NCBI GenBank assembly: GCA_902765395.1
Contig: CACWZP010000032.1
Span: 1 to 40,399, forward strand
Source of the DNA: an uncultured Eubacteriales bacterium
GTDB lineage: Bacteria > Bacillota > Clostridia > Christensenellales > Aristaeellaceae
Length of the DNA: 40,399 nucleotides
Reading direction: 5' to 3'
A program made the position numbers and the translations under genes. The notes beneath the pieces are model-generated. The model searched no databases and was not told where the DNA came from. It was given only the letters and a program-made list of their open reading frames with translations. This document shows, one piece after another, positions 8,066-40,239 of this stretch (position 1 is the first letter of the stretch; every line of letters begins with the position of its first letter).

Positions 8066-9192
8066 TCGTCTGCCTCCATCAATTCAAGAACCACGGCGTC
8101 CTGCACCTGCATCCCCCGCGGGGTCAGGCGCAGAAAGCCATCGGAAATCGCAATAAAGCCGCCCTGTTCCAGCCGGCACAGCGCCGCTTCCCGGCCGCGC
8201 TCAAAGGGCGTGCCGAACGCCGCCGCCCACGCGGCCATGTCCAGCCCCCGCGTGGTGCGGGTGGAGAGCATCAGCGTCTCCTCCATGGCGTCCGCCGCCG
8301 TCAGGCGCTGTGCGTCCAGCCGGCGCGTGCCGGAGAGGTAATCCTCCAGCGTTGCGGGATTGGAGAACCGGACGCCGTCCACCAGCGAATGGGCCGCGCA
8401 GCCCAGGCCCAGGTAGTCGCCCCGGTTCCAGTAGACCAGGTTGTGACGGCTCTCAAAGCCGGGCCGGGCGTAGTTCGAGATTTCATAGCGCGCAAGGCCC
8501 GCTTCCCCCAGCAGATTCAGCGCCAGCTGCTGCTGGGCGTTCACAGCGTCGTCGTCCGGGACGACGGCCTCGCCGCTGGCCACCCGCGCCGCCATGGGCG
8601 TGCCCTCCTCCACGATCAGGCTGTAGGCGGAGACGTGGGGAACGCCCAGCGCAAGGGCCGCCTCCAGCGCGTCCCGCCACTGGGCCATGGTCTGCCCCGG
8701 CAGGGCGTACATCAGGTCGAGGTTGATGTTGGAAAAGCCCGCGTCCCGGGCCATGCGCACGGCCTCGCCGATCTGCGCCGCCGTGTGGATGCGGCCCAGG
8801 GACTTCAGCAGCCCGTCGTCAAAGCTCTGGGCGCCCATGCTGAGCCGGTTGACGCCCGCCCGCCTGTAAGCGGCCAGCTTCTTCAGCGTCAGCGTGCCGG
8901 GGTTGCCCTCCAGGGTGATTTCCGCATTCGGCGCGAAGGGCCATATCCGCCTCGCCCGGGCGAGGGTCTGTTCAATATACCCGGCGTCCACCAGCGTGGG
9001 CGTGCCGCCGCCAAAGAACACCGTGGCGATCTCACAGCCCGAAAGCCCGTCCTTCCAGCCCTCCATCTCGCCCCAGAGCGCCTCGAAATATTGGCCCCAC
9101 TCCCCTTCCCTGCCCGGGAAGGAGGCGAAGTCGCAGTAGGCGCACTTCGACCGGCAAAACGGAACGTGGATGTAGAGGGAAAGCGGCTTCAT
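8062..9192 (-). CDS. hemW: HemW-type radical SAM protein (coproporphyrinogen oxidase-like)
   Basis: 376 residues starting MKPLSLYIHVPFC at the ATG with GGTGGAG 6 nt upstream; a GTG four codons earlier overlaps the ribosome site. The radical SAM cluster motif CRSKCAYC (CxxxCxxC) is at residues 12-19, followed by FFGGGTPT, TLEGNPGTL, NRLSMGAQSFDD and the HemN C-terminal signature HNLVYWNRGDYLGLGCAAHS. Known: HemW binds heme and is thought to deliver it to respiratory enzymes; it is not the true HemN oxidase. It follows lepA, as in many Firmicutes, but the hrcA-grpE-dnaK genes usually next are replaced by two PIG-L genes. 232 bp of hairpin-rich repeat DNA separates it from lepA; I saw no promoter there. 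Confidence 0.93.
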   Translation of the reverse strand: MKPLSLYIHVPFCRSKCAYCDFASFPGREGEWGQYFEALWGEMEGWKDGLSGCEIATVFFGGGTPTLVDAGYIEQTLARARRIWPFAPNAEITLEGNPGTLTLKKLAAYRRAGVNRLSMGAQSFDDGLLKSLGRIHTAAQIGEAVRMARDAGFSNINLDLMYALPGQTMAQWRDALEAALALGVPHVSAYSLIVEEGTPMAARVASGEAVVPDDDAVNAQQQLALNLLGEAGLARYEISNYARPGFESRHNLVYWNRGDYLGLGCAAHSLVDGVRFSNPATLEDYLSGTRRLDAQRLTAADAMEETLMLSTRTTRGLDMAAWAAAFGTPFERGREAALCRLEQGGFIAISDGFLRLTPRGMQVQDAVVLELMEADE

Positions 9193-9204
9193 ACATTGCT
9201 CCAC

Positions 9205-9424
9205 CCATCTGTCTGGGGTGTTGGGGGCGACAGCGCCCCAACGCTTGATCGTTCGCGGCGGCGTGTACGGCGCGAACGCAGGTCATTTTTCAGAAGTGGA
9301 AATCTCATTTCCCGGATGAAAAATGCCAACCTTGCAGATTTTGCGGCCGGAGGACTTCAGTCCTCAAGCAAAATCTGGTGGGGGTGGTATTGGCGGGGGA
9401 GCTCGCTCCCCCGTCCAAAGAACG
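9205..9424. repeat. cluster of inverted repeats between lepA and hemW
   Basis: No gene here. At least four separate inverted repeats lie end to end: GTTGGGGGCG with CGCCCCAAC (about 9220-9242), CATTTTTCA with TGAAAAATG (9284-9325), CAGATTTTGC with GCAAAATCTG enclosing GGACTTCAGTCC (9336-9376), and GGGGGAG-CTCG-CTCCCCC (9395-9412). The last directly follows lepA. The whole looks like a composite of short mobile or RNA-forming repeats of this genome rather than a single element. Confidence 0.6.
9392..9415 (-). terminator. stem-loop after lepA
   Basis: GGGGGAG-CTCG-CTCCCCC, 7 to 8 bp and very GC-rich, 10-33 bp past the lepA stop on the minus strand. No T-tract follows, so it may act as a weak terminator or a 3'-end stabiliser before hemW. 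Confidence 0.4.
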
Positions 9425-11230
9425 TCAGTCCATCTTCAAAACCGCCATGAACGCCTCGGAAGGCACGGCCACGCTGCCCACCTGGCGCATGCGCTTCTTG
9501 CCCTCCTTCTGCTTTTCCAGCAGCTTCTTCTTGCGGGAGATGTCGCCGCCGTAGCACTTGGCCAGCACGTCCTTGCGCAGGGCCTTCACGGTCTCCCGGG
9601 CGATCACCTTGCCGCCGATGGCCGCCTGGATGGGGATCTCGAACAGCTGCCTCGGGATGGCATCCTTCAGCTTCTCGGCGATGCTGCGGCCCCGGGGATA
9701 GGCCCGGTCCTTGTGCACGATGATGGACAGCGCGTCGCACTGCTCGCCGTTCAGGAGCATGTCCAGCTTGACCAGGTCGCTGCGGGCATAGCCCTTGAGC
9801 TCGTAGTCGAAGGAGGCGTAGCCCCGGGTGCGGCTCTTCAGCTGGTCAAAGAAGTCGTAGATCACCTCGTTCAGCGGCATGTCGTATTTCAGCAGCACGC
9901 GGCCGCCCTCGATGTATTTCATGTCCTTGAAGGTGCCCCGCTTGTCCTGGCACAGCTCCATGATCGCGCCCACGTAGTCCTGGGGCGTGATCACCTGGGC
10001 GTCCACCATGGGCTCCTCCATCCAGTCGATCTCCTGCACCGGGGGCAGGTTGGTGGGGTTGTCGATGTACACAGTCTCGCCGTCGGTCCTGACCACCTTG
10101 TACACCACGCTGGGCGCGGTGGTGACAAGGTCCAGGTCGAACTCCCGCTCCAGGCGCTCCTGGATGATCTCCATGTGCAGCAGCCCCAGGAAGCCGCAGC
10201 GGAAGCCGTAGCCCAGGGCCACGGAGGTCTCCGGCTCGTAGGACAGGGCCGCGTCGTTGAGGCGCAGCTTCTCCAGCGCGTCCCGCAGGCTCTCGTAATC
10301 CGCGCCGTCGGCAGGATAGATGCCGCAGTACACCATGGGCAGCACCGGCTTGTAGCCCGGCAGGGGCTCGGCGGCGGGATTGTCCGCCAGGGTGATGGTG
10401 TCCCCCACGCGGATATCGGCGATGTCCTTGATGGAGGCGGCGATGTAGCCCACCTCGCCGGCGTTCAGGCTGTCCTTGGGGCTGTAGCCCAGGGGCAGGT
10501 AGGCCCCGACCTCGGTGACCTCGAACTCCCGGTTGCCCGCCATCATGCGGATGCGGTCGCCCACCTTCACGCTGCCGGCCTTGAGCCGCACCGAGGAGAT
10601 GGCCCCGCGATAGTTGTCGTAGTAGGAATCGAAGATCAGCGCCTGCAGCGGCGCGTCCGCGTCGTCGGCGGGGGCGGGCACGTTCTTCACGATGTCCTCC
10701 AGCACGTCGTCGATGCCGATGCCCTGCTTGGCGGACACCAGCGGGCAGCCCTCGCAGTCCAGGCCGATCTCGTCCTCGATCTCCTGCTTCACCACCTCCG
10801 GCTGGGCCGAGGGCAGGTCGATCTTGTTGATGACCGGCAGGATCTCCAGATCGTGCTCCAGCGCCATGTAGACGTTGGCCAGCGTCTGGGCCTCGATGCC
10901 CTGGCTGGCGTCCACCACCAGGATCGCGCCTTCGCAGGCCGCCAGCGCCCGGGACACCTCGTAGGTGAAGTCCACGTGGCCGGGGGTGTCGATCAGGTTC
11001 AGGATGTACTCCTTGCCATCCTTCGCCACATAGGGCATACGCACAGCCTTCGACTTTATGGTGATGCCCCGCTCCCGCTCCAGCTCCATGCTGTCCAGCA
11101 CCTGGTCGGTCATGTCCCGCTGCTTCATCACGCCCGTGCGCTCCAGTATGCGATCCGCCAGGGTGGACTTGCCGTGGTCGATGTGGGCAATGATGCAAAA
11201 ATTGCGGATTCGGCTCTGGTCGTAGCTCAA
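9425..11230 (-). CDS. lepA: elongation factor 4 (LepA), ribosome back-translocation GTPase
   Basis: 601 residues. I chose the TTG at 11230 because a GGAGG lies 8 nt before it and the product then begins [26 protein letters not shown], as LepA proteins do; an ATG 11 codons upstream is in the AT-rich promoter region. G1 AHIDHGKS, switch 2 DTPGHVDF and G4 NKIDLP are intact; the LepA C-terminal domain ([28 protein letters not shown]) is complete. Length equals that of E. coli LepA (599). Known: it remodels stalled or mistranslocated ribosomes. It has its own sigma-A promoter and heads the lepA-hemW-PIG-L cluster. Confidence 0.97.
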
Positions 11231-11268
11231 AACGCAGTCCTCCGTCCCGTGAAATTCATACATTATAT

Positions 11269-11297
11269 ATCATAGAATATCAGTGTTAATTAATCAA
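11269..11297 (-). promoter_or_regulatory. lepA sigma-A promoter
   Basis: On the minus strand TTGATT (11297-11292), 17 bp, TATGAT (11274-11269), about 40 bp before the chosen lepA start. A second AT box (TATAAT) lies just downstream. Confidence 0.65.
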
Positions 11298-11349
11298 GCG
11301 GTTCGGGGGAACAGCGGATTCCCGCAAATGGCGTGAAGCTCAAAAACAG

Positions 11350-11510
11350 CCCTCCCCTTTGGGAAAGGTAGATTGCAAGCGAAGCGCGGCAAGACGGATG
11401 AGGTCCTCCTCGGCCAGGTTCAAACCTTAATCGCCACTGCGGCGCGAGGCGCATCGTACGGGGACCTCATCCGCCCCCCTTCGGGGACACCTTCCCAAAG
11501 GAGAAGGCCA
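11350..11510. repeat. intergenic inverted-repeat element, family A
   Basis: In the 11264-11741 gap. Outer arms CCTCCCCTTTGGGAAAGGT and ACACCTTCCCAAAGGAGAAGG are inverted, as are GGATGAGGTCC and GGACCTCATCC further in; the whole can fold as one long branched hairpin. Related ends (CCTTCCCC...GGGGAAGG next to a GACCTC-TTCCGTC word) occur near 1695-1735, 15070-15135, 29087-29147 and 40240-40310. No coding frame is convincing. Confidence 0.65.
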
Positions 11511-11664
11511 AATTGTGCATATATATTAATCTATTCTGTATATTTATTCGTTTACCATGGAAAATTATCAGGATTTCGATTTTCGATTTGATGCAAAAAT
11601 AATCCGCATCGTCGATTTGTGGCAGGAAAATGCAATTCTTAACATTCGGGTTGGCAGTTCTCTA

Positions 11665-11694
11665 TTGCCTTTTGGGGAGGGTTTATTGTATAAT
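11665..11694 (+). promoter_or_regulatory. promoter of the TAXI transporter genes
   Basis: TTGCCT (11665-11670), 18 bp, TATAAT (11689-11694). Transcription would start just before a small stem-loop GGCCGC-CTTT-GCGGCC (11708-11723), which then sits at the 5' end of the mRNA directly ahead of the GGAGG ribosome site and could protect it from decay. Confidence 0.7.
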
Positions 11695-11741
11695 ACAATT
11701 ATTAAAAGGCCGCCTTTGCGGCCATGAATGGAGGAACCAAC

Positions 11742-12686
11742 ATGAAGAAGATCCTGTCCCTGGTCATCGCGATGGTCCTGGCCCTGGGCTGCACCGCGGC
11801 TCTGGCTGACCTGCAGTTCGGCACCGGCGGCGAGTCCGGCACCTACTACGGCTACGGCACCGTGCTGGCCCAGTACATCTCCGACAACACCGACGTGAAG
11901 ATCACCGTCGTCTCCAGCGGCGGCTCCGCCGCCAATATCGACGACCTGGAAGCCGACACCCGCCAGCTGGGCTTCGTGCAGAACGACGTGGCCTACTACG
12001 CGGTGAACGGCGTCCGCCTGTTCGACGGCGCGCCCGTGGAGAACATCTCCGCCCTGGCCGCCCTGTACATCGAGGCCGTGCAGGTCGTGACCAACAACCC
12101 CGACATCAAGTCCATCGAGGATTTGAAGGGCAAGAACGTTTCCATCGGCGCCGCCGGTTCCGGCGTGTACTTCAACGCCATCGACTTCCTGCAGGTCTAC
12201 GGTCTGACCGAGGATGACATCAACGCCCAGTACCTGAACTTCCAGGAGACCTGCGACGCGCTGAAGGACGGCAAGATCGACGCGGGCTTCATCGTGGCCG
12301 GCGCTCCCACCCCCGCCATCACCGAGCTGTGCACCACCCAGGGCGCCCAGCTGCTGAGCCTGGACGCGGACCACATCGCCGCGCTGCAGGATATCTCCGC
12401 CGCCTACGCCGAGACCACCATCCCCGCCGGCACCTATGACGGCATCGATGCGGATGTCACCACCGTGGGCATGAAGGCCACCATCGTCGCCAACGACTCC
12501 GTGACCGAGGACGAGGCCTACACCATCGTCAAGACCATCTTCGAGGGCAAGGACGAGATCACCGAGGGCCACGCCAAGGGCGCCGAGCTGGATCTGGAGT
12601 TCGCCTCCACCTGCGGCATCCCCTACAACGCCGGCGCTGCCAGGTACTTCGCCGAGCAGGACATCGAGGTCGAGACCGCTGAATAA
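11742..12686 (+). CDS. TAXI family TRAP transporter solute-binding protein
   Basis: 314 residues, start MKKILSLVIAMVLALG with GGAGG about 7 nt upstream. Signal peptide ends AALA|D near residue 22; a lipobox is not convincing. The mature protein opens with LQFGTGGESGTYYGYG, the TAXI family hallmark, then SSGGSAANIDDLEADTRQLGFVQNDVAYYA, ALYIEAVQVVTN and DLKGKNVSIGAAGSG, all typical. Known: TAXI proteins deliver small organic acids or amino acids (for example glutamate-like compounds) to TRAP permeases driven by ion gradients. The fused permease gene follows by 254 bp. The strong codon bias toward GC-ending codons and the 5' stem-loop suggest high expression. Substrate cannot be read from sequence. 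Confidence 0.94.
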   Translation: MKKILSLVIAMVLALGCTAALADLQFGTGGESGTYYGYGTVLAQYISDNTDVKITVVSSGGSAANIDDLEADTRQLGFVQNDVAYYAVNGVRLFDGAPVENISALAALYIEAVQVVTNNPDIKSIEDLKGKNVSIGAAGSGVYFNAIDFLQVYGLTEDDINAQYLNFQETCDALKDGKIDAGFIVAGAPTPAITELCTTQGAQLLSLDADHIAALQDISAAYAETTIPAGTYDGIDADVTTVGMKATIVANDSVTEDEAYTIVKTIFEGKDEITEGHAKGAELDLEFASTCGIPYNAGAARYFAEQDIEVETAE

Positions 12687-12718
12687 GCCCCTCGCCCCAA
12701 AGGCACTCTGATTCGTTC

Positions 12719-12747
12719 GGGGCTGCGGTTGACAAAGCCGCAGCCCC
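12719..12747 (+). terminator. stem-loop after the solute-binding protein gene
   Basis: GGGGCTGCGG and CCGCAGCCCC, 10 bp stem, 9-nt loop, 32 bp past the stop. There is no T-tract. It could be an attenuator or RNA stabiliser giving more binding protein than permease. Confidence 0.5.
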
Positions 12748-12782
12748 GTATCATCATCGAATCGTCCCGTTTAAACATCGTA

Positions 12783-12897
12783 CAGATCCTTCGACTGCGC
12801 CTTGCATCACGCAAGGCTTCGCTCAGGATGACAAGTGCCAGGCTTATGTCATTCCGGGCGGAGCATCGCAGCCGGCGATGCGCAGTCGAAGAATCTG
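12783..12897. repeat. palindromic repeat, family D, copy 1
   Basis: Inverted arms AGATCCTTCGACTGCGC and GCGCAGTCGAAGAATCTG enclose inner inverted words GGATGACA and TGTCATTCC. Between TAXI protein and permease genes. A second copy is at 32984-33084. Repeats of this wording (TTCGACTGCGCTCAGAATGACA type) are known to be widespread in bacterial genomes. Confidence 0.75.
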
Positions 12898-12940
12898 TGC
12901 GTCATGTGCTGAATCAACAACATAGAAGGAGGCCGACCGC

Positions 12941-14992
12941 ATGTCTGAAAACAAACCCCAGGACCCCAAACTGAACACGACGCAGGCCGATGTCGCCGCG
13001 AACGTCGAAGCCGTTATGAAGAAGTTCGACCGCGAGTCGAACGTTCGCATCTGGACGGGCGTCCCGAAGATCGTCGTCAGCTGCGTGCTGGTGCTGTTCT
13101 CGCTGTTCTGCCTGTATGTCACGCTGTTCGCTAACTTCCTGGAGCAGGTACGCCTGTCCAGCTTCCTGGGGCTGGTGATCATCATGGGCTTCCTCACGTT
13201 CCCCGTGAAGAAGGGCTATGTGAAGGAAAACTACATGCCCTGGTATGACATCGTGCTGATGGTGGCCGGCGCGGCGGCCTTCTTCTACTTCACCTTCAAC
13301 GCCCAGGAGATCGTGGCCATGCGCCCGAAGATGCTGCTGGCACCCAAGTACACGGTGATCGCCGTGGTGGGCATCGTGGTGCTCAGCGAGCTGTGCCGCC
13401 GCAGCGTGGGCCTGCCGGTGCTGTGCGTGGCGCTGTTCTTCCTGGCCTACACCTTCATCATCAGCAAGCAGACGCTGCCCATGGCGGCCCGTCAGCTGTT
13501 CTTCACCACCACCGGCGTGCTGGGCACCCCCATCAACGCCTGCTCGAAGTTCATCGTGGTGTTCACCATCTTCGGCGCGTTCCTGGAGCGCACCGGCGTG
13601 TCCGACTTCTTCATCAACCTGGCCAACAGCATCACCGGCCGCTTCGCGGGCGGCCCGGCGAAGGTGGCCGTCATCTCCTCGGCGCTGTGCGGCATGGTGT
13701 CCGGCAGCTCCGTGGGCAACACCGTCACCACCGGCTCGGTCACCATCCCAATGATGAAGGAGACCGGCTACAAGCCGGAGTTCGCCGGCGCGGTCGAGGC
13801 GGCGGCCTCCACCGGCGGCCAGATCATGCCGCCCATCATGGGCGCGGCGGCCTTCCTGATGGCCGAGATCGTGGGCGTGCCCTACTCCGACATCATCGTG
13901 CGCGCCATACTGCCCGCGGTGCTGTACTTCCTGGGCATCTTCATCGCCGTGCACCTGGAGGCCAAGAAGCTGGGCCTGAAGGGCATCGACCGGAACCTGC
14001 TGCCCCGGATGCGCAGCCTCATCAAGCAGACCTACATGCTGATGCCGCTGATTATACTGATCTACCTGGTGTCCACCAACAGCCGCACCATGCAGTTCTC
14101 CGCGGCCATCGCCATCATCGCCACCATCGTGGTGGGCGTCATCAACAACATCGTGGACTACTTCGCCACCAGCAAGAAATCCGGCGAATCCGCCAGCGCG
14201 GGCGGCGCGCTGTCCGCGGCGGTGGGCGCCAGGGGCGGCTTCACCGCCAAGAGCATCTTCGACGCGCTGGAGTCCGGCGGCCGCAGCTGCATCACCGTGG
14301 CCGTGGCCTGCGGCATGGCCGGCATCATCACCGGCTGCCTGACCATCACCGGCCTGGCCAGCCAGATGATCAACGGCATCGTGTCGCTCACCCAGTCCCC
14401 CGCCCTCCAGGGCGTGCCCGGGCTGGCGCTGCTGCTGGGCCTGCTGTTGACCATGCTGTGCTGCATCGTGCTGGGCATGGGCGTGCCCACCACGGCCACC
14501 TACTGCATCATGGCGGCCACCTGCGCGCCGATCCTGACCAAGATGGGCGTACCGGTGCTGGCGGCCCACTTCTTCGTGTTCTACTACGGCATCGTGGCGG
14601 ACATCACCCCGCCTGTGGCCCTGGCGGCCTACGCCGGCGCGGCCATCGCCAAGGGCAAGCCGATGCAGACCGGCGTGACGGCCACGCGGCTGGCCATCGG
14701 TGCGTTCATCATCCCCTTCGTGTTCGCCGCCAGCCCGGCGCTGCTGTTCATCGACACGGTGTGGTATGAGGTCATCCTGATCGCCATCACCGCCACCATC
14801 GGCATGTTCGGCGTGGCCGCAGGCCTGTCCGGCTACCTGCTGGTGAACATGAACATCCTGGAGCGCCTGCTGCTGATCGGCGGCGGCCTGGCGCTGATCA
14901 TCCCCGGCACGCTGACCGACTTCATCGGCCTGGGCCTGATCGCCCTGGGCGTGGTGCTGCAGCTGCCGAGGCGGAAAAAAGCCACGGCGTAG
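12941..14992 (+). CDS. TRAP transporter permease, fused small and large subunits
   Basis: 683 residues, ATG preceded by AAGGAGG at 8 nt. A polar N-terminus (about 1-45) is followed by the small-subunit-like helices (SCVLVLFSLFCLYVTLFANF onward) and then the large DctM-like domain of about 12 helices. Conserved stretches include KVAVISSALCGMVSGSSVGNTVTTGSVTIPMMK, AAASTGGQIMPPIMGAAAFLMAE and GMGVPTTATY, the two substrate/ion-site hairpins of DctM, and ITPPVALAAYAGA. Known: fused TRAP permeases pair with TAXI binding proteins, so with the upstream gene this is a complete Na+ or H+-driven uptake system. A repeat element and stem-loop lie between the two genes. Confidence 0.94.
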   Translation: MSENKPQDPKLNTTQADVAANVEAVMKKFDRESNVRIWTGVPKIVVSCVLVLFSLFCLYVTLFANFLEQVRLSSFLGLVIIMGFLTFPVKKGYVKENYMPWYDIVLMVAGAAAFFYFTFNAQEIVAMRPKMLLAPKYTVIAVVGIVVLSELCRRSVGLPVLCVALFFLAYTFIISKQTLPMAARQLFFTTTGVLGTPINACSKFIVVFTIFGAFLERTGVSDFFINLANSITGRFAGGPAKVAVISSALCGMVSGSSVGNTVTTGSVTIPMMKETGYKPEFAGAVEAAASTGGQIMPPIMGAAAFLMAEIVGVPYSDIIVRAILPAVLYFLGIFIAVHLEAKKLGLKGIDRNLLPRMRSLIKQTYMLMPLIILIYLVSTNSRTMQFSAAIAIIATIVVGVINNIVDYFATSKKSGESASAGGALSAAVGARGGFTAKSIFDALESGGRSCITVAVACGMAGIITGCLTITGLASQMINGIVSLTQSPALQGVPGLALLLGLLLTMLCCIVLGMGVPTTATYCIMAATCAPILTKMGVPVLAAHFFVFYYGIVADITPPVALAAYAGAAIAKGKPMQTGVTATRLAIGAFIIPFVFAASPALLFIDTVWYEVILIAITATIGMFGVAAGLSGYLLVNMNILERLLLIGGGLALIIPGTLTDFIGLGLIALGVVLQLPRRKKATA

Positions 14993-34714: not shown

Positions 34715-36763
34715 ATGAAGAAGAGCAGGCTGCTGTGGCTTTTGCCGGCGCTGCTCCTGCTTTGGCTGGTGGGCACCGGTGAACCGGCCCTGGCCGAAGG
34801 GGAAGCGACCGCGGAGTGGACGTTCATGATGTACATGTGCGGCTCCGATTTGGAATCGAAGCACGCCCTGGCCAGCTACAACATGCGCGAGATCACCTCC
34901 ATGTGGTTCCCCGCGCAGGTCGTCGCCAGTACGGACGAAGGCGTGGAGCTGGTGGACTGGCAGGCCAGCGGCGTCAACCTGGTGATGCAGACCGGTGGCG
35001 CGAAGCAATGGCACGGCATGGATGTGGACGACGATGGCAAGAGCCTCGGCGTGGAATTCGCCACGGACCGCCTGCAGCGCTTTGCCTTCAATCTGGAATA
35101 CAACGAGGATCGCCACGGCTATATGCCGGCGCTCAGCCTGGTGGACGAACAGCCGCTGGCCAGCATGGCCAGGCCCGAGACGCTTTCAGAATTCATACGC
35201 TGGACCGTGGCGCATTATCCGGCGAAAAAGTACGGCCTTTTGCTGTGGGACCACGGCGGCGGCAGCCGCACGGGCCTGTTCGTGGACGAGTTGTTCGACA
35301 ACGACATCATGTACCTCTACGAGCTGGGCGACGCGCTCTCAGGCGCACAGGCCCACTTTGAACTCATCGCCATCGACGCCTGCCTGATGTGCAGCCTGGA
35401 GACCGCCCGAACGGTGGCGCCCTACGCGGATTTCATGGTCGCCTCGGAGGAAGTGGCAGCGGGCAACGGCAGCGCTTTTGCGGAATGGATGCATGAATTG
35501 TACCGCAATCCGGGCTGCAGCGGCGGAGAGCTGGGCTGCGAGTTCTGCGACGCGACCCAGCTGAAGTACGCCGAGCAGAGCGACGCGTTGCAGGAGGAGC
35601 AGTTGACCTATTCGACGATCCAGCTGGACGCCATCGACGAGGTGGCCGAGGGCTTCGACCGCCTGTTTGACTTCGCGGGCCAGCTCTATGAGAGCTATCC
35701 CTCCCGGTTCAACATGTTCTGCAACTATCTGGTCAACGCGGAATCCTACGGGCAGGGCGGCGCCGACATGATCGACCTGGGCAGCTTTCTCTACAATAAC
35801 GACACCATGGCCCTGCTGGACGCCGATATCCGCAACGGCCTGGTCGCGGCGCTGGAGCAGGCGGTGTATTACAACATCAAGGGCAGCGGGCGGAGCGCCT
35901 CGAAGGGCCTTTCCTTCTGCTACGCGCCAAACATGACCCCCAGCGAGCTGGACATCTATGCCCGAAACTGCCAAAGCCCGGCCTATCTGGCGCTGCTGGA
36001 CGCCGTCAACCCCGAGTGGGAAGCGCCGGAATGGGCGTATCAGAAGGCGCGCCGCCTGACGCCCATCGACGAGCTGGAGGCCTATCAGATGACGCTGGAG
36101 CTGCTCCAGGGCGACGGCCTGCCGCGGCTGCACGTCATCAACCGGGGCGGCAGCCTGCTCAGATGCGATTTCAATCTGTATTTCATGGACGAGGGATCCG
36201 GCGAAATCTGCTCCCTGGGGAGCACCAGCGCATTCGCGGATTGGGACGAAGAGCTGGGCGACGCCGTCTATCTCATGGACAATTCCGGCCATTGGCCGGC
36301 CATCGAAGGGCATGGCTGCTGCATAGAGCTGATCGACCAGGCGGACGGTGAATTTCTGTACAACGTTCCCATACAGATCGGAACCGACAACATCATCCTC
36401 CGCCTGCGCGCCAATCCCCGCTACGACGAGGATATGGGCCAGATGGTCTATGAATGCGACGCGATCGGGCTCTGGCAAGGCTACGATCAGGACACCCGCA
36501 TGCCCGACCGCTCCATCATCTCCTTCAACCAGATGCAGGGCCGGGAATACAGGCTGCTCTATCCCTGCTGCGACGATGACGGCACAAAAACAGAAGGCTT
36601 CCAGTTCAGCGATACCATGACGATGCATCGCGGACTGGAAGTCGATTACGCACCCCTGCCCGTGGGAGAATACTATTGCAGCTTTACCGTGCGGGACATC
36701 TTCAGGCGCAGCCACACGACGCAGCTGGTGAAGCTGTCCTGGGACGGAGAGAGCTTCGGTTAA
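34715..36763 (+). CDS. secreted clostripain-family (C11) cysteine protease
   Basis: 682 residues from MKKSRLLWLLPALLLLWL, with AAGGAGG 11 nt before the ATG, somewhat far but the only site. Signal peptide ends ALA|EG near residue 27. The C11 fold is clear: WTFMMYMCGSDLES (about 35-48), GLLLWDHGGGSRTG with catalytic His H180, and FELIAIDACLMCSLETA with catalytic Cys C223; ASEE follows. About residues 500-680 form a C-terminal domain rich in beta-strands and Trp/Tyr (DDDGTKTEGFQFSDTMTMH), of unknown type. Known: clostripain cleaves after Arg and is self-activated. No anchor or LPxTG is seen, so probably released. Its stop is 1 bp from the stop of the small peptide on the other strand. Confidence 0.93.
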   Translation: MKKSRLLWLLPALLLLWLVGTGEPALAEGEATAEWTFMMYMCGSDLESKHALASYNMREITSMWFPAQVVASTDEGVELVDWQASGVNLVMQTGGAKQWHGMDVDDDGKSLGVEFATDRLQRFAFNLEYNEDRHGYMPALSLVDEQPLASMARPETLSEFIRWTVAHYPAKKYGLLLWDHGGGSRTGLFVDELFDNDIMYLYELGDALSGAQAHFELIAIDACLMCSLETARTVAPYADFMVASEEVAAGNGSAFAEWMHELYRNPGCSGGELGCEFCDATQLKYAEQSDALQEEQLTYSTIQLDAIDEVAEGFDRLFDFAGQLYESYPSRFNMFCNYLVNAESYGQGGADMIDLGSFLYNNDTMALLDADIRNGLVAALEQAVYYNIKGSGRSASKGLSFCYAPNMTPSELDIYARNCQSPAYLALLDAVNPEWEAPEWAYQKARRLTPIDELEAYQMTLELLQGDGLPRLHVINRGGSLLRCDFNLYFMDEGSGEICSLGSTSAFADWDEELGDAVYLMDNSGHWPAIEGHGCCIELIDQADGEFLYNVPIQIGTDNIILRLRANPRYDEDMGQMVYECDAIGLWQGYDQDTRMPDRSIISFNQMQGREYRLLYPCCDDDGTKTEGFQFSDTMTMHRGLEVDYAPLPVGEYYCSFTVRDIFRRSHTTQLVKLSWDGESFG

Positions 36764-36764
36764 A

Positions 36765-36995
36765 TCAATCGCGGATCGTGCCGCAGATGTTGCAGACCCA
36801 GCCCCCATTGCGCCTGAGCTGGTGCGAGGTGATGTGCCCGCATCTTTCACAATACTTATCGGATGTGGAGGCCTGGCTCAGAGGCGAAACGAACGGAAAG
36901 TCCGGGAAAAATGACAAGCCGCCAGCGACCTGCTGGAGCTCCTCACCGTTGAGATCGCGCACGTCGGCTTCCCTCTCGTTATTCTTGTTTTCCAT
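36765..36995 (-). CDS. 76-residue double-glycine leader peptide with CxxC-CxxC core
   Basis: ATG at 36995, GGAGG 6 nt upstream. The N-terminus MENKNNEREADVRDLNGEELQQVAGG is a double-glycine leader (E..L..V.GG form, cleavage after residue 26). The predicted 50-residue core starts LSFFPDFPF, is Pro/Ser/Phe-rich and ends in a zinc-ribbon-like knot: YCERC (C49, C52), 15 residues, VCNIC (C68, C71). Known: GG leaders are cut by C39 peptidase-containing exporters and are typical of class II bacteriocins, pheromones and Nif11-type RiPP precursors. A consensus sigma-A promoter (37059-37031) shows it is transcribed on its own. No PCAT exporter, radical SAM or other maturase gene is in the window. It could also be an ordinary small zinc-ribbon protein with a chance GG. 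Confidence 0.8.
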   Translation of the reverse strand: MENKNNEREADVRDLNGEELQQVAGGLSFFPDFPFVSPLSQASTSDKYCERCGHITSHQLRRNGGWVCNICGTIRD

Positions 36996-37030
36996 AATTT
37001 TCCTCCTCGGAATGATTTAATCGCAAATTA

Positions 37031-37059
37031 ACTATACCATTATCCTCAGAAAAAGTCAA
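37031..37059 (-). promoter_or_regulatory. promoter of the GG-leader peptide gene
   Basis: Minus strand TTGACT (37059-37054), 17 bp, TATAGT (37036-37031), 35 bp before the ATG. It lies between nifU and the peptide gene. Confidence 0.8.
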
Positions 37060-39439: not shown

Positions 39440-40012
39440 TCAATCCATCACATACCAGATCTTGTCTATGGTGTTCACCTTGTCCTGCTGGGTCTCGCCC
39501 CGGATGATGCTCTCCACCAGAGGGATAGCGCGCCCGCCGGTGCGGGTGATGGTGTCGGCGCAGTAAAAGGTGTCGCTGTCCTCGTCGTAGCCGAACAGGT
39601 AGATCGCGTGGGGCATGCCGGTGTCGTAGATCACCACGCCCTCCGGATGGAACTGCAGCACGTTGATCAGGTACGCCTTCTTGTCGATGGCATTGCGGAT
39701 ATCGGCGTTGCATGTCACCTGCACCTGCCCGATGGTGAAGTTCTGGCTCAGGCCCCACTGCTTCGTCCAGGCATAGTGGCCCACGCCGGTGTCCGTCACC
39801 ATCTCGTAGGGCGTGCCCCGCTGGCAGGAGTAGTTGCGCAGCATCATCGTGGCCGAAACCAGCGTGCAGGTGTGTGGCACATTCTGGGTGATGAACACGC
39901 CTTCGTCCGGGTGCGAGCCGAAGTACAGCCCCTCCGCGCCGGCATTCACAGCCAGCGACGCGATTAGCGCCAGCACAAACGCGATCGCCCATATTCTCCG
40001 CGTCTTTCGCAT
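39440..40012 (-). CDS. secreted C39-like (papain-fold) protein
   Basis: 190 residues from MRKTRRIWAIAFVLALIASL, with GGAGGTGA 5 nt before the ATG; in-frame upstream codons precede the -35 box and were rejected. Signal peptide ends AGA|EG near residue 26. The rest matches the peptidase_C39_2-like (papain-fold) pattern: NVPHTCTLVSATMMLRNYS with nucleophile C49 in the usual QxxCxxxSxxMxL place, then GMPHAIYLFGYDEDSDTFYCADT with His H135 and an Asp after it. Q is replaced by N/H-T. Known: secreted members are putative cysteine peptidases or transglutaminase-like cross-linkers of the cell wall. No partner domain or anchor. Single-gene unit with its own promoter and terminator. Confidence 0.85.
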   Translation of the reverse strand: MRKTRRIWAIAFVLALIASLAVNAGAEGLYFGSHPDEGVFITQNVPHTCTLVSATMMLRNYSCQRGTPYEMVTDTGVGHYAWTKQWGLSQNFTIGQVQVTCNADIRNAIDKKAYLINVLQFHPEGVVIYDTGMPHAIYLFGYDEDSDTFYCADTITRTGGRAIPLVESIIRGETQQDKVNTIDKIWYVMD

Positions 40013-40043
40013 GAAAATCACCTCCGTAAACCGGTACTCTACC

Positions 40044-40072
40044 AGTTTAGCGGCTGCGACATTCGATTGCAA
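40044..40072 (-). promoter_or_regulatory. promoter of the C39-like gene
   Basis: Minus strand TTGCAA (40072-40067), 17 bp, TAAACT (40049-40044), 31 bp before the ATG. A moderate match. Confidence 0.55.
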
Positions 40073-40239
40073 AGACATTCCCGCAAACAAAACTTGCCAA
40101 TAATCGGGCAGGTGGTGACAGAACTTAGTTTCGTAATAGCTTCTGGACAAGGGCGTGCCATCGCTGTGAAAACCTGTGACAATATTACCAGGCGCGCATA
40201 TTTCACATACCTTCGCAACATTTGCATCCTTAGCCGTTC

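What the first reader, a model, noticed from the sequence alone, without database searches (positions are those of the whole stretch)
36765..36995. Double-glycine leader joined to a CxxC-CxxC zinc-ribbon core, tail to tail with a clostripain
A 76-residue product has a textbook GG leader (EELQQVAGG) and a 50-residue core with two CxxC pairs 15 residues apart. GG-leader peptides usually carry bacteriocin or pheromone cores; a zinc-ribbon core is unusual. It has a consensus promoter and ribosome site of its own and its stop lies 1 bp from that of a secreted C11 protease, which cleaves after Arg; the core has an RR pair (61-62) between the Cys pairs. It may be an exported metal-binding or cysteine-crosslinked peptide.
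Basis: partly seen in the sequence, partly recalled or inferred. Interest (0 to 1): 0.72.

Follow-up and report, generated by a model that had tools for sequence, protein, structure and literature searches.

The report
Exported zinc-ribbon peptide beside a protease
A bacterium related to uncultured Clostridiales carries a small gene that looks like an exported zinc-binding miniprotein paired with a secreted protease gene, and it belongs to a diverse family of such predicted exported zinc miniproteins, some of them in tandem arrays beside peptide exporters.

Summary
On the minus strand, 36765-36995 encodes 76 residues: a double-glycine leader with V(-4), L(-7), L(-12), the PCAT pattern, then a 50-residue core with two CxxC pairs. 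Six relatives keep leader and four Cys; 0 of 200,000 shuffles gave both motifs. The genome has one C39 exporter, an NHLM-type PCAT on another contig.

The wider family is the real find. GG-leader peptides with zinc-ribbon or zinc-finger-like cores occur in many genera of this bacterial family, about 20 in tandem in G070; in 7 of 37 loci an NHLM gene lies in the fetched stretch. Ligand sets vary by pattern (C4, C3H, C2HC, C2H2), favouring zinc over Cys crosslinks; no LanC-like gene is in the own genome.

The C11 link is real but narrow: all 5 loci of the window's subfamily have a C11 gene or remnant tail-to-tail, but none of 40 other C11 stretches of the genus shows a GG-zinc peptide. The RR site is not conserved.

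Export, zinc binding and function are inferred, not shown. Nine paper searches found no such cargo.

The parts
36765..36995 (-). gene for the 76-residue GG-leader zinc-ribbon peptide (stop included)
   Evidence: relatives
36918..36995 (-). double-glycine leader, residues 1-26; L15(-12), L20(-7), V23(-4), G25 G26
   Evidence: pattern as reported for PCAT1/LahT (passages); L15, L20, G25, G26 invariant in the 7 members of A4
36768..36917 (-). 50-residue core
36768..36860 (-). zinc-ribbon-like part, residues 46-76, ligand candidates C49 C52 C68 C71; T56 and H58 also invariant
   Evidence: (strands 46-49, 54-60, 66-68; block pLDDT 65-79)
37002..37007 (-). ribosome site AGGAGG, 6 nt before the ATG
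   Evidence: read
37031..37059 (-). promoter-like site TTGACT-17-TATAGT with TG
34715..36763 (+). secreted C11 (clostripain-like) peptidase, convergent neighbour; signal-like N-terminus MKKSRLLWLLPALLLLWLVG, His in WDHGGG and Cys in DACLM by eye
   Evidence: the start at M38 of the listed ORF (34604) is my choice

Best explanation
The gene encodes an exported zinc-ribbon miniprotein. Its amphipathic leader is read and cut after Gly26 by the genome's single C39 exporter (NHLM-type PCAT, contig C22), and the 50-residue core is released. The four Cys bind one Zn ion and hold a small beta-ribbon. Outside, it acts together with the secreted C11 protease encoded tail-to-tail: I think most likely as a competition or surface-acting effector whose amount or activity the C11 sets (activation, trimming or turnover). 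Shown here: leader pattern, exporter gene, conservation of leader and Cys, conserved C11 neighbourhood, Cys/His variation across the family, exporter linkage of some other family members. Inferred: cleavage, export, zinc binding, action outside, and any physical contact with C11.
For: Leader fits the PCAT substrate rule -4/-7/-12 plus GG and resembles that of the GG peptide beside the own exporter (LNLEELEEVTGG against LNGEELQQVAGG). One C39 gene, over the NHLM_micro_ABC1 cut-off, with an ABC2 over cut-off and an HlyD-like match below cut-off; full-length match to PCAT1 4ry2, E 7e-98. The 4 genomes with the subfamily all have NHLM ABC1 over cut-off, against 19 of 28 in the genus. Seven subfamily genes at 5 loci in 4 genomes (E <= 2.9e-20; these are the profile's own members) keep L-12, L-7, GG, CxxC, TxH, CxxC. 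C11 tail-to-tail at 5 of 5: own, G108 and G016 intact; G283 C182, C11 end cut by the contig edge, E 3e-32; G283 C81, a degenerate remnant, E 1.4e-10. Genes beyond the pair differ (NifU, cysteine desulfurase, Rrf2 in the window; P-type ATPase in G016). Own genome has only 4 C11 genes. Wider family: an NHLM gene in the stretch in 7 of 37 loci, one of them in G016 of the same genus (that contig may be mis-binned). The strongest rows of a family profile against solved structures are zinc proteins (designed fingers, GATA, eS31, eL42).
Against: No exporter in the window. AF2 model is poor overall (mean pLDDT 60, two sequences only; residues 51-76 at 76-79) and Foldseek matches are weak (best E 0.26). 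No Pfam zinc family passes its cut-off. C11 linkage does not extend to other C11 genes: in 40 stretches covering 41 of the 88 C11 rows of the genus, profiles A3/A4 find a GG peptide in one only, and that is the Cys-less one of G108's copy of the own exporter locus. G128 for example has four C11 matches and no subfamily peptide. No conserved basic site in the core for C11. 30 of 37 GG-zinc loci show no NHLM gene in the stretch, though several contigs are short. G000 and G108 are close relatives, so the 5 loci are not 5 independent cases. The competition role rests on array diversity alone: in six close G070 pairs core dN exceeds dS in 4 and not in 2, without a significance test.
Confidence: 0.6

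Rival explanations
1. A bacteriocin-like zinc peptide; the C11 gene is a linked bystander or serves only general protein turnover.
For: Tandem arrays with kept leaders and varied cores: 190 pairs in G070, mean leader identity 0.75, core 0.37; bacteriocin-type models are the commonest weak NCBIfam matches of the family.
Against: C11 converges at 5 of 5 subfamily loci; no immunity gene recognised among the 9 neighbouring proteins scanned.
Confidence: 0.25
2. The exported ribbon is an inhibitor, stabiliser or partner of the C11 protease, protecting the producer or directing the enzyme.
For: Conserved convergent pairing; another GG-zinc cluster lies beside another enzyme gene, an alkyl sulfatase.
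Against: No contact shown; other C11 genes have no such peptide nearby; two own C11 genes sit by a GG peptide without Cys.
Confidence: 0.2
3. Cysteine-crosslinked RiPP (thioether or disulfide) rather than a zinc protein.
For: NHLM loci L203, L211 and L077 carry radical SAM genes and other Cys-rich GG precursors.
Against: No LanC-like gene in the own genome; no modifying enzyme among the 7 window neighbours with a Pfam match; by pattern 28 of 107 family cores use His for one or two ligands; profile resembles solved zinc proteins. Radical SAM genes elsewhere in the own genome were not searched for.
Confidence: 0.12
4. Zinc scavenger or zinc carrier released to the surroundings.
For: Many copies of zinc-site domains predicted to leave the cell; the neighbouring alkyl sulfatase has a metallo-beta-lactamase domain.
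Against: Nothing at the loci points to zinc uptake, but zinc transport or regulator genes were not searched for; C11 enzymes are not zinc enzymes (recalled).
Confidence: 0.1
5. An intracellular zinc-ribbon protein with a chance GG.
For: Tiny zinc-ribbon proteins are usually intracellular (recalled); no exporter in the window.
Against: Leader positions -12, -7, -2, -1 invariant in 7 members; arrays with kept leaders near NHLM exporters.
Confidence: 0.04

Closest known systems
PCAT / double-glycine peptides (PCAT1-CtA; LahT; ComA-ComC)
   Same: Leader with hydrophobics at -4, -7, -12 and GG (rule from passages); exporter with full-length match to PCAT1
   Different: Core is a predicted zinc ribbon, not a pheromone, class II bacteriocin or modified peptide; exporter lies on another contig
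NHLM export systems (TIGR03796/03797)
   Same: Own exporter pair scores over both cut-offs (ABC1 887 bits, ABC2 730 bits)
   Different: No NCBIfam leader model matches P0001 at E <= 0.01
Small zinc-ribbon proteins (Pfam zinc-ribbon families, GATA-like, eL43-like ribbons)
   Same: Two knuckles; three short strands predicted
   Different: Carries a PCAT leader; below every Pfam cut-off
Fragipain-activated bacteriocin Fab1 of Bacteroides fragilis (PMC8406203, abstract and outline seen)
   Same: A C11 protease acting on a secreted antibacterial protein
   Different: No activation shown here and no conserved basic site in the core

Membership tests
PCAT-exported double-glycine peptides | Leader with hydrophobics at -4, -7, -12 and GG at -2, -1 | tested here: met
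   V23, L20, L15, G25 G26; rule from passages
PCAT-exported double-glycine peptides | C39-type exporter in the genome | tested here: met
   One PF03412 match, E 3.6e-34
PCAT-exported double-glycine peptides | Exporter in the same locus (usual, not obligatory) | tested here: not met
   Exporter is on C22, window is C32; other family members: NHLM gene in 7 of 37 loci
PCAT-exported double-glycine peptides | Cleavage after GG and secretion | not testable with these tools
   needs bench work
Zinc ribbon | Two CxxC knuckles kept in relatives | tested here: met
   C49 C52 C68 C71 invariant in 7 members
Zinc ribbon | Zinc-ribbon fold | tested here: inconclusive
   C-terminal part pLDDT 76-79, weak PDB matches
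Zinc ribbon | Score above a curated Pfam zinc-ribbon cut-off | tested here: not met
   14 families listed, all below cut-off
Zinc ribbon | Bound zinc | not testable with these tools
   needs bench work
Lanthipeptide-type RiPP | LanC-like cyclase in the genome | tested here: not met
   0 matches of PF05147 in the own genome, 95.9% complete
Radical-SAM RiPP | Radical SAM maturase at the locus | tested here: not met
   None among 9 neighbouring window proteins, 2 of which have no Pfam match; rest of the genome not tested
Bacteriocin_IIc (Pfam PF10439) | Match to the model | tested here: not met
   Not among matches of P0001 at E <= 5
C11 peptidase (neighbour) | PF03415 over cut-off | tested here: met
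   98.7 bits against 25.8

The most novel reading that the evidence does not exclude
PCAT/NHLM exporters of this bacterial order secrete a diversifying repertoire of small folded domains (zinc ribbons, C2HC and C2H2-like fingers, and also SH3b domains), partly from tandem arrays that keep the leader and vary the core; some lineages pair one member with one secreted enzyme, here a C11 protease, as a dedicated module.
Probability: 0.45. Interest if true: 0.85.

Novelty: new variant of a known kind. Interest (0 to 1): 0.64.

Why it matters
GG-leader exporters are known for pheromones, class II bacteriocins and modified peptides. A family whose cores are small zinc domains would add a new cargo type, would mean that metal-site domains are made for use outside the cell, and gives a compact testable pair (peptide and C11 protease) for what such cargo does.

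Full report
WHAT IS THERE. The ORF is real and sits at the stated place on the minus strand. Its leader ends VAGG; counted back from the cut the hydrophobics are V(-4), L(-7) and L(-12), the set reported for PCAT1 and LahT (passages of PMC6959990 and PMC10885120). The core is 50 residues with CERC and CNIC, 15 residues between them. It has its own promoter-like site and ribosome site. The C11 gene converges on it with 1 bp between stops. Shuffling the protein gives leader plus two CxxC pairs in 0 of 200,000 trials, and it is the only one of 261 short window ORFs with either motif.

EXPORTER. The own genome (3.38 Mb, 53 contigs, 95.9% complete) has one C39 domain, in contig C22. That gene scores 887 bits against NHLM_micro_ABC1 (cut-off 853), with an NHLM ABC2 (730, cut-off 709) and an HlyD-like protein below its cut-off. 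It matches PCAT1 (4ry2) over the full length. Next to it are a GG peptide without Cys, whose leader LNLEELEEVTGG resembles that of the window peptide, and two C11 genes in divergent orientation. So three of the four C11 genes of the genome lie in loci with a GG peptide; the fourth (C4) does not by the pattern used.

SUBFAMILY. A profile of seven members (A4) run over 308 genomes of the family finds those seven genes at E <= 2.9e-20, at five loci in four genomes of the genus: own, G108, G016 (three in tandem), G283 (two loci); 13 weaker rows were not counted. M1, L15, E19, L20, G25, G26, the four Cys, T56 and H58 are invariant. At all five loci a C11 gene converges: intact in own, G108 and G016; in G283 C182 the last 83 residues are visible before the contig ends (65% identity, E 3e-32), and in G283 C81 there is a degenerate remnant (E 1.4e-10). 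Own and G108 are close relatives, and the gap between the genes runs from 1 bp (own, G108) to about 600 bp (G016). Flanks differ: in the window NifU, a cysteine desulfurase and Rrf2, in G016 a P-type ATPase. Against a general link, in 40 further stretches around C11 genes of the genus the A3 and A4 profiles find a GG peptide only in G108's copy of the own exporter locus, and that one has no Cys. The pairing is therefore a property of one C11 lineage.

WIDER FAMILY. Using the first relatives as a profile (A1) revealed GG-leader genes with CxxC cores in many genera, among them about 20 in one 6.5-kb contig of G070, six or seven in G131, four-gene clusters in G089, G264 (one copy reads GS instead of GG), G299 and G045. 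With the broader profile A3 at E <= 1e-6, 12 of 396 genomes drawn from the order and 2 of 398 from the phylum match, own included, so the family looks concentrated in this order. Of 45 stretches examined, chosen for profile hits, 37 hold a GG-zinc gene by my pattern and 7 of these also hold an NHLM ABC gene of at least 300 bits (in G045 it is about 9 kb away). In G131, G270 and G384 the arrays lie within about 2 kb of the operon. G016, of the window's genus, has such a gene after NHLM ABC2, but that contig is 86-91% identical to G384 DNA of another family, so it is either transferred or mis-binned.

ZINC OR CROSSLINKS. I sorted 107 distinct cores by pattern, chosen beforehand for a CxxC or CxH: 71 C4-like, 20 C3H, 6 C2HC, 2 C2H2-like (one of these is more likely C3H by eye), 8 other; one or more are Cys-rich precursors of another kind. 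The choice favours Cys, so only the presence of His sets is evidence. In G070 close paralogues differ by CxxC against CxxGH at the last knuckle. The strongest rows of the family profile against solved structures are zinc proteins; lower rows include a cytochrome c protein. No LanC-like gene is in the own genome. Radical SAM genes occur at L203, L211 and L077 (SPASM match in the first two), where other Cys-rich GG precursors lie; whether zinc-type peptides are also modified there is open. The AF2 model of P0001 on two sequences is weak overall (pLDDT 60) with a stranded C-terminal part at 76-79, and Foldseek gives only weak matches (best E 0.26), several to ribosomal ribbons at about 1.5 A over 30 residues.

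SELECTION. P0001 against G108: dN 0.064, dS 0.160; C11: 0.027 and 0.101. The core alone has 2 synonymous and 6 other changes, too few to read. In the G070 array the 190 pairs average 75% identity in the leader and 37% in the core; of the six pairs with core identity above 0.6, leader dN is below dS in 5 and core dN above dS in 4. Pairs share members and no test was made.

HOW IT LIKELY WORKS. Leader recognition and cutting by the NHLM PCAT, export, zinc folding, and action outside the cell with the C11 enzyme. For the last step I favour an effector whose activity or lifetime is set by C11; a precedent for C11 acting on a secreted antibacterial protein is fragipain and Fab1 (abstract of PMC8406203). 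A C11 inhibitor or partner role is nearly as likely. None of these steps was shown here.

KNOWN OR NEW. The export principle is known. I found no description of PCAT cargo with zinc-ribbon or zinc-finger cores in the nine searches listed, in a library that lacks most subscription journals. No Pfam or NCBIfam model matches P0001 above its cut-off.

Noticed in passing
L014 (own genome C22) 8489-13423; L149: NHLM exporter operon with a GG peptide lacking Cys and two C11 genes in divergent orientation; the arrangement is kept in G108.
   Followed up: partly
L132 4199-4483 (-); L130 4699-5016 (+): GG-leader peptides in NHLM exporter loci whose cores match SH3_3 (49 and 34 bits, cut-off 27).
   Followed up: partly
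L061, L062, L064, L065 (L066 and L067 in part): Four-gene GG-zinc cluster kept in three genera next to an alkyl sulfatase gene (Pfam for L061), near a sigma-factor-like gene (by eye) and, in L064, an arylsulfotransferase.
   Followed up: partly
L017 5449-5634; L061 8224-8448; L062 8064-8288; L064 8748-8972; L065 4329-4583; L077 9111-9341: Small ORF with a leader-like end LE(L/M)VSAAG, in several loci just before a sigma-factor-like gene; perhaps a signal or regulator peptide.
   Followed up: no
L211 (G016 C61) against L203 (G384 C2): Cluster of NHLM, sigma factor, GG zinc-finger peptides and radical SAM gene shared at 86-91% DNA identity between different families: recent transfer or a mis-binned contig.
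   Followed up: partly
L078 5081-5341; L050 1513-1773; L052 291-551: Near-identical GG-zinc peptide WTFHSNGKYHTW... in three genera (G120, G086, G209).
   Followed up: no
L209 3813-8425; L077 10227-10577; L066 10258-10572: Cys-rich GG precursors with repeated CxC and GGGG motifs; in L209 and L077 with NHLM genes, in L066 with none seen.
   Followed up: no
window 36763-36785: Convergent stops 1 bp apart leave no room for a terminator between the genes; one terminator-like site lies inside the peptide gene's end (36785..36770, -), so the two transcripts may overlap.
   Followed up: no
window 39440-40150 (-): Secreted-looking 236-aa protein without a Pfam match; a papain-like look is by eye only.
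   Followed up: no
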